A DNA stretch of 39,022 bases, taken from the NCBI GenBank assembly GCA_028278645.1, contig JANQDZ010000026.1, positions 1 to 39,022 of the forward strand, in the 5' to 3' direction. A model generated the notes under the pieces. It was given only the letters and a program-made list of their open reading frames with translations. It was not told the origin of the DNA and did not search any database. Each line of letters opens with the position of its first letter. Within the stretch, counting starts at the first letter, position 1. Below are positions 15,044 to 17,325 of this stretch, one piece after another. Position numbers and translations under genes: made by a program. The DNA is from Longimicrobiales bacterium (lineage in GTDB: Bacteria; Gemmatimonadota; Gemmatimonadetes; Longimicrobiales; Gaopeijiaceae).

Positions 15044-15415
15044 TCAGGGGCCATATTGGGCCCACTGCCCTGGGCTTTCTGACACCCGGGCGTACAACAG
15101 GCCCTCCGATAGCTCCGGAGGTAGCCGCTTCTTCATCTCGTCGTAGAAGAACCGAGCCTGGTTCTCGGCCGTGCTCTCGATCTCCGTGAAGGGCGAGACG
15201 TCGTTCAGATTCACGTGGTCGAACCGCTCGGCCAGCTCCTTCAGGTGCTTCTTGAGATCGGTGAAGTCGTACACCATCCCCTGTTCGCCCACGTCCGGCG
15301 CACGAACCGCAACCTCCACGTGGTAACGATGGCCGTGCAGGTGGGCACACTTCCCTTCGTAATTCCTCAGGAGGTGGGCGGCATCGTAATGGGCCTGGAC
15401 GGAGATCGTGTACAT
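15044..15415 (-). CDS. queD: 6-carboxytetrahydropterin synthase / PTPS family (QueD)
   Basis: 123 residues, typical for bacterial QueD. Zinc ligands His14, His27 and His29 and the catalytic Cys23 (KCAHLHGHRYHVEV) match the family in order and spacing. The segments MVYDFTDLK, FDHVNLND and STAENQARF and the final Glu region are also standard. It converts dihydroneopterin triphosphate to 6-carboxytetrahydropterin, the second step of queuosine and deazapurine synthesis. FolE, which makes the substrate, is encoded 46 nt upstream in the same direction, a coherent pair. A biopterin-type PTPS role cannot be excluded from sequence alone, but the length and motif fit QueD. Confidence 0.9.
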   Translation of the reverse strand: MYTISVQAHYDAAHLLRNYEGKCAHLHGHRYHVEVAVRAPDVGEQGMVYDFTDLKKHLKELAERFDHVNLNDVSPFTEIESTAENQARFFYDEMKKRLPPELSEGLLYARVSESPGQWAQYGP

Positions 15416-15461
15416 GAGCTTCGCTCTGGGTCTGGGTGTCGGTTCTCGGCCTCGGGGACGG

Positions 15462-16070
15462 TTAAGAAAGAAGGACGTGTCCCGCCATCGACAACCGAAG
15501 GAACTCGTCCCGGGTCTTCTTATCGCTCAGGAAAACTCCCCTCATGGCAGAGGTGAGGGTTTTGGAATTCTGCTTCTCGACACCCCTCATCATCATGCAG
15601 AGATGGTACGCCTCCACCACCACCCCCACGCCCATGGGCTGGATCGTATCCCACACGGCTTGGGCCACTTGCTCGGTCAGGCGTTCCTGAACCTGAAACC
15701 GGCGAGAGAAGACCTCGACCAACCGGGCCGCTTTGGACAACCCCATGATCTGGCCATCCGGTATGTAGGCGACGTGGGCCTTCCCGAAGAACGGGAGCAG
15801 GTGGTGCTCACACATGGAATAGAGCTCGATGTCCTTTACGAGAACCATGTTGTGGTGCCGTTCCTCGAAAATGCCGTCCCCAATCACGTCCTCAGGCGTC
15901 ATCCCGTAGCCCTGCGTCAGGAACTTCATCGCTTTTGCGACACGCTCCGGGGTCCGGTCCATCCCTTCACGGTTTGGATCAGGATCCAACCGGGCGATCA
16001 TCTCTCGGACCAGCGACTCGAACGGTACGCTGGAAAGGTCGGCTTCGTGGCTTTTTCCGTCGCCTGACAT
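15462..16070 (-). CDS. folE: GTP cyclohydrolase I (FolE)
   Basis: 202 residues from ATG 16070; the frame runs upstream to 16193, but that extension lacks family character. The zinc ligands are clear: Cys87 and His90 (YSMCEHH) and Cys158 (YHLCMMMRG). The GTP-binding region [22 protein letters not shown] and the conserved [12 protein letters not shown] are present, as is the C-terminal TRDEFLRL. It converts GTP to dihydroneopterin triphosphate, feeding folate and, with QueD downstream, queuosine synthesis. The upstream gap contains a terminator hairpin and a structured RNA candidate, so folE may have its own promoter between 16071 and 16190; I could not pick one confidently. Confidence 0.95.
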
Positions 16071-16189: not shown

Positions 16190-16225
16190 ACAAATAAAGG
16201 CCGGCATCACATGGATGCCGGCCTT
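16190..16225 (-). terminator. Rho-independent terminator
   Basis: A perfect 12-bp stem (AAGGCCGGCATC, 16197-16208, with 16214-16225) encloses a 5-nt loop. On the minus strand it is followed by TTTATTTG, a good U-tract, which sets the direction. It ends the candidate RNA that begins near 16382, and may also stop read-through from nfo. Confidence 0.85.
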
Positions 16226-16382
16226 AGATACGTACCGGAAGGCAGTTATTGAAGCCCGGGTCATAACATCTGGTGACTTCCCTAGGCATTCGCAGTCCCC
16301 CGAAAGGGCAGGACGTCCGCCGTTGGAGTCAGTCCCGGCTTCATCTGTGTTGGCTCAGTAACGAAGCCTTCCGACACGCTCC
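16190..16382 (-). ncRNA. Structured small RNA candidate (possible 6S RNA)
   Basis: No gene fits this part of the 373-bp gap between nfo and folE. Read on the minus strand, 16366-16379 pairs with 16230-16243 to close a rod about 150 nt long: a central GGAAGGC/GCCTTCC with flanking wobble and Watson-Crick pairs. Inside, GAAGCCGGG (around 16334-16342) pairs with CCCGGGCTTC (16251-16260), TGACT pairs with AGTCA, and an apical GTCC/GGAC hairpin caps the rod. An unpaired stretch containing CUGAGCC lies between the closing stem and the inner stem. An end-paired rod of 150-190 nt with a large internal bubble, its own promoter and a terminator is the 6S RNA layout. A leader or attenuator of folE is the alternative. 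The fold was drawn by hand. Confidence 0.45.
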
Positions 16383-16388
16383 ACCCGC

Positions 16389-16418
16389 AATATAGGGTGG
16401 TCCGGGGCCTGGCGTCTA
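16389..16418 (-). promoter_or_regulatory. Candidate sigma70-type promoter for the ncRNA
   Basis: On the minus strand, TAGACG (16413-16418) and TATATT (16389-16394) are separated by 18 nt, matching 4 of 6 and 5 of 6 consensus bases. The predicted start is the GG at about 16381-16382, exactly at the base of the closing stem of the RNA. It lies just after the nfo stop codon. Confidence 0.5.
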
Positions 16419-16443: not shown

Positions 16444-17325
16444 CTATGGATTTTCCCGGAACCCTCGGAGGAACTCCAAGTTCTTCAGATCATTCCCGAT
16501 CGGGTCCGGTTCCTTCGGCGTTTCAAGGACTTTGGGGATCTCGAAGAAGCGGGGATCCTGGACGATGCGGCGGAACGGATCGGCCCCGAGGCTCCCCTCG
16601 CCCAGGTGTTCGTGCCTGTCCTTTCGAGATCCGAACGGGTTTTTCGAGTCGTTCATGTGGAATAGGCCCAACCGGTCCAGGCCCAGGATGTCGGAGAACG
16701 CTGTCCAAACTCCGTCATAGTCCTTCACCAGATCGTATCCGGCGGAGTAGGCGTGGCAGGTGTCGAAGCAGATACCCAATCGGTGATGGAGATCCCGAGG
16801 GATTCGGGAGAGAATCGCCGCCAGATCCTGGAAGGATCCTCCTACCGTGGTCCCTCCCCCGGCTGTGAGCTCCAGGAGAACCCGGGTTGGCCCATCGACG
16901 CCCTCCAGAGCTCTGGTCACCCCCTCGGCATTCCTGGAGATCCCGCTCTCGTGGTCACCGTCTGTGGCATTCCCTGGATGGGTAACAAGGAATTGAAGGC
17001 CCAGGATCGAACACCGTTCCAACTCTTCTTTAAAAGAGGAAAGGGACCTATCCCAGAGTTCGCTTTTCGGTGAGGCCAGGTTGATGAGGTAGGAGTCATG
17101 GGATCCGGCCACCCCGATCTCGTGGGCTTCCATCTCGGCCTGGAAAACAGCCTTTGTTTCCAAGGTCACCTCCGGCTCGGCCCAGCGGTTGGGCTGCTTG
17201 GTGAACAGCTGGAGGCAGGTCGAATTGATCTCCCGGGCCCTTCCTGGGGCCGTTTGAACCCCTCCCGCGGTGGAAACGTGGGCGCCGAATTCATCAAAAG
17301 GTGGCTTTTTCAAGGTTTTTCCCAT
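16444..17325 (-). CDS. nfo: Endonuclease IV (AP endonuclease)
   Basis: 293 residues from ATG 17325, with AAAGGA 6 nt upstream; the longer frame has no family match. Motifs of the TIM-barrel EndoIV family appear in order: FGAHVSTAGG, GSHDSYLINLASP, LVTHPG, LELTAGGG (usual form LENTAGQG), GICFDTCHAYSAGYD, LFHMNDSKNPFGSRKDRHEHLGEG and LETPKE near the end. The zinc-binding His, Glu and Asp residues of the trinuclear site are therefore present. It cleaves DNA 5' of abasic sites in base excision repair. The gene has no close same-strand partner; the candidate RNA promoter begins right after its stop. Confidence 0.95.
   Translation of the reverse strand: MGKTLKKPPFDEFGAHVSTAGGVQTAPGRAREINSTCLQLFTKQPNRWAEPEVTLETKAVFQAEMEAHEIGVAGSHDSYLINLASPKSELWDRSLSSFKEELERCSILGLQFLVTHPGNATDGDHESGISRNAEGVTRALEGVDGPTRVLLELTAGGGTTVGGSFQDLAAILSRIPRDLHHRLGICFDTCHAYSAGYDLVKDYDGVWTAFSDILGLDRLGLFHMNDSKNPFGSRKDRHEHLGEGSLGADPFRRIVQDPRFFEIPKVLETPKEPDPIGNDLKNLEFLRGFRENP

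What the first reader, a model, noticed from the sequence alone, without database searches (positions are those of the whole stretch)
16190..16418. Structured ncRNA between nfo and folE, possibly 6S RNA
A minus-strand transcript unit with a TAGACG-18-TATATT promoter, an end-closing stem (16366-16379 with 16230-16243), an inner stem, an apical hairpin and a terminator with U-tract. The shape and length fit 6S RNA; a folE attenuator is the alternative.
Basis: partly seen in the sequence, partly recalled or inferred. Interest (0 to 1): 0.6.

Follow-up and report, generated by a model that had tools for sequence, protein, structure and literature searches.

The report
Overlooked 6S RNA of Gemmatimonadota
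The stretch between two housekeeping genes encodes 6S RNA, the small RNA that bacteria use to park RNA polymerase when they stop growing; it is a strongly diverged version that the standard RNA library does not recognise in this genome, although almost every genome of this phylum carries it.

Summary
The minus strand of 16190-16418 holds a compact RNA gene: promoter, about 193-nt rod-shaped RNA, terminator. The window sequence has no Rfam match to 6S. A covariance model built from 55 relatives found beside folE finds the RNA in 119 of 121 Gemmatimonadota genomes, nearly always once. All 12 places where Rfam's 6S model rings faintly in that phylum are places of this RNA. One same-class relative (L155) passes Rfam's 6S gathering score (51.4 against 46.4 bits); four more score 35.6-43.0. 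In 5 of 5 relatives fetched from the most distant family the RNA sits directly behind zapA, as ssrS does in E. coli. The helices show heavy compensatory change. The putative template start, aligned to the pRNA start of E. coli 6S, is a pyrimidine in 50 of 50 aligned relatives. The RNA persists where folE is not adjacent, so it is not a folE leader. Expression, RNA polymerase binding and pRNA synthesis were not testable. I call it a divergent new member of the 6S family. One unusual feature is a pair of mutually exclusive helices at the bubble in most relatives of the window's clade.

The parts
16413..16418 (-). -35-like hexamer TAGACG
   Evidence: the 18-nt spacer and -10 fit; less conserved than the -10
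16389..16394 (-). -10 box TATATT
   Evidence: exact in 41 of 65 homologues, A2/T6 kept in 56 of 65
16190..16382 (-). 6S RNA gene, transcript about 193 nt (5' end inferred 7 nt after the -10; 3' end at the terminator T-tract)
   Evidence: model R1 match 16382..16225, 134 bits
16366..16379 (-). closing stem, 5' strand (pairs with 16230-16243)
   Evidence: 9 of 9 modelled pairs of this helix with two-sided changes, 96.1% of cells paired
16230..16243 (-). closing stem, 3' strand
16344..16365 (-). 5' strand of the central bubble, with UGAGCC at 16352-16357 followed by AACA
   Evidence: UG and CC invariant in 50 of 50; aligns with CCUGAGCCGAUA of E. coli 6S
16349..16362 (-). predicted template of a 14-nt pRNA, start at C16349 (aligned to the pRNA start U44 of E. 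coli 6S; that start is recalled)
   Evidence: pyrimidine in 50 of 50 aligned members (40 C, 10 U); pRNA synthesis not tested
16334..16343 (-). helix B, 5' strand (UGAAGCCGGG), pairs with 16250-16260 in the predicted open-bubble state
   Evidence: motif present in 48 of 76 relatives examined
16246..16256 (-). GGCUUCAAUAA: 3' partner of either helix A (with 16352-16361) or helix B; runs into the 3' strand of the bubble (16244-16249)
   Evidence: (helix 2)
16263..16333 (-). internal/apical arm with terminal hairpin (GCCC..GGGG)
   Evidence: helices 4-6
16197..16225 (-). intrinsic terminator, 12-bp hairpin followed by TATTTGT
   Evidence: a hairpin recurs at this place in most homologues
15462..16070 (-). 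folE (GTP cyclohydrolase I), downstream neighbour, not part of the RNA
   Evidence: PF01227, E 4.9e-73
16444..17325 (-). nfo-like AP endonuclease, upstream neighbour, not part of the RNA
   Evidence: PF01261, E 9.3e-45

Best explanation
This is the 6S RNA (ssrS) gene of a Gemmatimonadota bacterium. A sigma-A-type promoter makes a roughly 193-nt RNA, ended by its own terminator, that folds into a rod: closing stem, central bubble, apical arm. Shown here: the gene, its near-universal and mostly single-copy presence in the phylum, the covarying rod, the conserved bubble motif, the chain of homology to Rfam 6S and the zapA neighbourhood shared with E. coli. Inferred from 6S knowledge: the rod mimics an open promoter and traps the housekeeping RNA polymerase holoenzyme when growth stops. 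When nutrients return, the polymerase copies the 5' bubble strand from C16349 into a short pRNA (predicted to begin GUUGGCUCAGUAAC), which refolds the RNA and frees the enzyme.
For: (1) Model R1, built only from homologues in the first-fetched loci (mostly folE neighbourhoods), hits 119 of 121 phylum genomes, one match each except G024 with two. (2) RF00013 over 121 genomes of the phylum rings at E<=1 in 12 places; all 12 overlap R1 matches. (3) Laxer cmscan of 15 relatives against all 4227 Rfam families: at the RNA's place the only family hit is 6S, in 6 of 15. L155 has 51.4 bits, over the 46.4 gathering score and full model length; L141 43.0, L139 42.8, L142 42.3, L140 35.6, L145 26.4. (4) Synteny: in 5 of 5 family-f9 loci and the single f8 locus the order is pheT - zapA - RNA; E. 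coli has zapA - ssrS. (5) Model R2 picks E. coli ssrS as best match of its 801-base locus, full length, 11.4 bits, E 0.0056. (6) Structure: 92.3% of cells paired against 72.4% shuffled; 28 of 35 pairs with two-sided changes; sliding the partners collapses the score. (7) The aligned template-start base is a pyrimidine in 50 of 50. (8) 6S anatomy taken from PMC8876501 and PMC4227106 (passages read).
Against: The window RNA itself has no RF00013 match even at E<=10, nor do 9 of 15 relatives at E<=2. R1 sees E. coli ssrS only at 4.4 bits, E 5.6, and R2's E 0.0056 would not survive a whole-genome search. R2 contains the bridging relatives, so that test is not fully independent of the chain. The window's own neighbours (nfo, folE) are not the E. 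coli ones. No expression, binding or pRNA data exist here. Two of 121 genomes have no match (G134, G039), nor do G001 and G030.
Confidence: 0.93

Rival explanations
1. A cis-acting leader or attenuator of folE: the terminator hairpin and an alternative fold would control read-through into folE in response to pterin or folate supply.
For: In the window the RNA ends about 120 nt before folE, same strand; among 145 loci with the RNA, 107 show a folE match downstream on the same strand (biased, because 80 of the loci were fetched by folE, and some loci overlap).
Against: Among 20 loci fetched by the RNA and not by folE, 10 have no folE match within the roughly 2 kb held. In 5 of 5 f9 loci the RNA lies between zapA and rny. 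In several loci folE begins 1.3-1.9 kb away or queD lies between. 15 folE loci have no RNA within the flank held. The RNA has its own conserved promoter. No riboswitch family matches in Rfam at its gathering score.
Confidence: 0.03
2. [quoted passage not shown]
For: Ms1 looks like 6S in outline and was first taken for 6S (PMC9130861, passages); structure alone cannot tell core from holoenzyme binding.
Against: Ms1 is about 300 nt with two extra end hairpins (PMC9130861); this RNA is about 193 nt without them, apart from the terminator. Rfam's 6S model, not another RNA family, matches the relatives. zapA synteny is that of 6S.
Confidence: 0.03
3. A structured housekeeping RNA of another, undescribed kind that only resembles 6S.
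For: The window sequence matches no Rfam family.
Against: The chain to RF00013 above gathering score in L155, 12 of 12 coincident hits, shared zapA neighbourhood and bubble motif.
Confidence: 0.01

Closest known systems
6S RNA / SsrS (Rfam RF00013; E. coli ssrS)
   Same: Length class, rod with closing stem, bubble and apical arm; UGAGCC motif on the 5' bubble strand pairing with GG(C/G)UUCAA on the 3' side, as in the RF00013 consensus; pyrimidine at the template start; zapA neighbour in distant relatives.
   Different: Sequence too diverged for RF00013 in the window; shorter (R1/R2 have 159 positions against 187); in the window's clade a second helix (GAAGCC with GGCUUC) competes for the same 3' strand; neighbours nfo and folE.
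B. subtilis 6S-1 and Aquifex aeolicus 6S (central bubble collapse helix type)
   Same: Alternative pairing in the bubble region that may serve refolding (PMC8876501, PMC4227106, passages); the A. aeolicus 6S entry in the PMC4227106 table carries pheT, a neighbour also seen here in f9 and f8 loci.
   Different: The competing partners here are two 5'-side segments sharing one 3' strand; no sequence comparison with these two RNAs was run.
Ms1 RNA of Actinobacteria
   Same: RNA polymerase-binding rod with a bubble.
   Different: About 300 nt, extra end hairpins, binds core enzyme (PMC9130861, passages).

Membership tests
6S RNA (RF00013) | The window sequence itself reaches Rfam's 6S gathering score (a detection threshold, not a property of the molecule) | tested here: not met
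   No match at E<=10; best in own genome 14.1 bits elsewhere. PMC4227106 (passage) names 6S RNA among ncRNAs expected to escape detection.
6S RNA (RF00013) | Demonstrable homology to RF00013 through relatives | tested here: met
   L155 51.4 bits, over 46.4; L141, L139, L142, L140 35.6-43.0; same places found by R1; 12 of 12 faint RF00013 places coincide with R1 matches
6S RNA (RF00013) | About 160-200 nt, rod of closing stem, central bubble, apical arm | tested here: met
   193 nt, fold and covariation
6S RNA (RF00013) | 5' bubble strand usable as pRNA template, start opposite a pyrimidine | tested here: met
   Sequence requirement only: C or U in 50 of 50; synthesis itself not testable
6S RNA (RF00013) | Gene neighbourhood known for 6S (zapA / fau in E. 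coli; pheT in the A. aeolicus table) | tested here: met
   In relatives: 5 of 5 f9 loci and 1 f8 locus. Not in the window, whose neighbours are nfo and folE
6S RNA (RF00013) | Binds sigma-70/sigma-A holoenzyme and accumulates in stationary phase | not testable with these tools
   No expression or binding data
Ms1 RNA | About 300 nt with additional 5' and 3' hairpins | tested here: not met
   About 193 nt without them, apart from the terminator; definition from PMC9130861
folE leader/attenuator | Always immediately upstream of folE | tested here: not met
   10 of 20 RNA-fetched loci without folE nearby; zapA-RNA-rny in f9
6S-Flavo (RF01685) | Match to RF01685 | tested here: not met
   No match in own genome at E<=10

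The most novel reading that the evidence does not exclude
In the window's family and its nearest kin, 6S RNA carries a built-in two-state bubble: one 3' strand (GGCUUCAAUAA) can pair either with the pRNA template strand (UUAUUGAGCC, bubble shut) or with a second segment (GAAGCC, bubble open). The pRNA has nearly the sequence of that 3' strand, so its synthesis would lock the open state by strand competition; this would be a release or binding switch unlike the E. coli 3' hairpin.
Probability: 0.3. Interest if true: 0.5.

Novelty: new member of a known kind. Interest (0 to 1): 0.35.

Why it matters
6S RNA is a global transcription regulator, and the standard library leaves it largely unannotated in this phylum. 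The alignment and models here give a way to annotate it, name the exact pRNA to look for, and show the gene in two neighbourhoods within one phylum (zapA in distant families, nfo-folE in the window's). It does not change the picture of how 6S works unless the two-helix bubble proves functional.

Tried and rejected
Direct Rfam identification of the window failed; sub-threshold hits there (Thr_leader, Esr41, rli42 and others) lie on the terminator hairpin or are weak, and were rejected as chance. RF00013 in the own genome gave only a 14.1-bit match elsewhere, with no relation to this RNA.

One search reports 0 of 121 genomes over the RF00013 cut-off; this used stricter filters and understates the case, since the laxer scan puts G126 (locus L155) over the cut-off. 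I therefore do not claim that Rfam misses the whole phylum. I take the 121 genomes to be the same draw; one search does not list its 89 genomes without a match.

R1 on E. coli ssrS was not significant; R2 was marginal. I wanted 6S loci of other phyla for a reciprocal test, but a search centred on E. coli was not accepted and I dropped that test. Fold energies do not settle which bubble helix prevails: among 48 relatives with both, helix A exceeds B in 25. That count left out L044 (motif not found) and has one visibly misregistered row (L149); L146 was dropped as a duplicate of L105.

Papers: Barrick 2005, Wehner 2014 and Beckmann 2012 are not held, so I could not check whether Wehner 2014 lists a Gemmatimonas 6S. 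Searches for 6S RNA with Gemmatimonadetes, Gemmatimonas, Gemmatimonadota, and Gemmatimonad plus small RNA gave 0 papers.

Full report
What is there. On the minus strand between the nfo-like gene (16444-17325) and folE (15462-16070) lies a complete RNA gene. A promoter-like pair TAGACG-18-TATATT starts at 16418; a 12-bp terminator hairpin with a T-rich tail ends the unit at about 16190. The RNA between folds into a rod with z -4.15 against shuffles.

It is conserved as an RNA. DNA similarity is found in 20 of 39 genomes searched, the own one included. Organism names came from a folE-based fetch of 80 loci, most of them titled Gemmatimonadota, Gemmatimonadetes or an order or family of it. A single-sequence profile search over 101 loci gave 72 hits, 65 after removing identical or contained copies. 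In a MAFFT alignment of these 55, made without structure information, RNAalifold gives 35 pairs, 23 of them with at least one compensatory change. The -10 box is exact in 41 of 65 and keeps A2 and T6 in 56 of 65, inside otherwise variable flanks.

It is phylum-wide and mostly single copy. Model R1 from those 55 sequences matches 119 of 121 Gemmatimonadota genomes at E<=0.01, one match each except G024 with two. On a structure-fitted alignment of 50 diverse matches (49 distinct), 92.3% of cells pair against 72.4% in shuffles, 28 of 35 pairs carry changes on both sides, and sliding the partners by 1-3 columns drops the covariation score from 0.592 to 0.154 or less. That alignment leans towards its model; the 55-sequence one does not.

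It is 6S. The window RNA is too diverged for Rfam: no 6S match even at E<=10. Its relatives are not. RF00013 rings at E<=1 in 12 of 121 genomes of the phylum, and all 12 places overlap the R1 matches, although R1 was built without reference to 6S. A laxer scan of 15 relatives against all Rfam families finds 6S at the RNA's place in 6 of 15 and no other family there: L155 at 51.4 bits (gathering score 46.4), L141 43.0, L139 42.8, L142 42.3, L140 35.6, L145 26.4. The other hits in that scan, a tRNA beside the RNA in L156 and a weak P10 match in L150, lie elsewhere. In the five most distant loci fetched (family f9) the RNA follows pheT and zapA and precedes rny; L138 also has a ZapB-like gene between pheT and zapA, with a Pfam match below its cut-off. 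L155 (family f8) has pheT, zapA, the RNA (Pfam for L138 and, for zapA, L142). E. coli has zapA directly before ssrS. The table in PMC4227106 names pheT beside the A. aeolicus 6S RNA (passage). A wider model, R2, places its best match in the E. coli locus exactly on ssrS over its full length, 11.4 bits, E 0.0056 for 801 bases; R1 alone had not been significant.

The bubble. The 5' bubble strand carries UGAGCC followed by N-A-pyrimidine-A. The pyrimidine is C in 40 and U in 10 of 50, and it aligns with the U of E. coli GCCGAU. From recall that U is nucleotide 44, where pRNA starts. The 3' side carries GGCUUCAA, complementary to UUGAGCC; compensations occur (UUGGGCC with GGCUCCAA in L071 and L091; UUGAUCC with GGGUUCAA in some f9 members). 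The same pairing is drawn in the RF00013 consensus. In 48 of 76 relatives a second segment, GAAGCC or a close form, competes for the same 3' strand. Predicted pair probabilities are split, mean 0.48 for helix A and 0.32 for helix B, A above B in 25 of 48. In the window, helix B prevails (0.39 to 0.92 by pair, against about 0.08 for helix A), and blocking the predicted pRNA site leaves closing stem and helix B intact with an open 5' strand. Whether this is a switch is inference.

It is not a folE leader. Of 145 loci with the RNA, 107 show folE downstream on the same strand, but 80 of the loci examined were fetched by folE and some overlap. Of the 20 loci fetched by the RNA, 10 have no folE match nearby. 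15 folE loci have no RNA in the flank held.

Mechanism. From established 6S biology (PMC8876501 and PMC9130861, passages read) I infer that the RNA mimics an open promoter, sequesters sigma-A RNA polymerase when growth slows, and is released when the polymerase copies the 5' bubble strand into pRNA. None of this was measured here.

Novelty. A new, diverged member of a known family. Searches for 6S RNA together with Gemmatimonadetes, Gemmatimonas, Gemmatimonadota or Gemmatimonad found no paper, but the main 6S survey (Wehner 2014) is not held, so an earlier listing of a Gemmatimonas 6S cannot be excluded.

Noticed in passing
G024, G028, G032, G036 (family f3); loci L160, L163, L165, L167, L169-L172: Four of eight genomes of this family carry two diverged copies of the RNA, recalling (from memory) the two 6S genes of Bacillus; one of the eight (G030) has none.
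   Followed up: partly
L025, L050, L060: Contigs filed under Candidatus Kuenenia, Rhodospirillaceae and Gammaproteobacteria carry Gemmatimonadota-like folE (L050 and L060 also the RNA): probably misbinned contigs in public metagenome-assembled genomes.
   Followed up: no
G000:C73:17415-17654 (L173): The own genome keeps a zapA gene, but no copy of the RNA lies in the locus held around it: the RNA gene's place relative to zapA differs within the phylum.
   Followed up: partly
G134, G039, G001, G030: No match to R2, nor (G134, G039) to R1; loss or assembly gap not distinguished.
   Followed up: no
window 15044-16070 and relatives such as L029, L032, L079: The gene order after the RNA varies between RNA-folE-queD and RNA-queD-folE.
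   Followed up: partly
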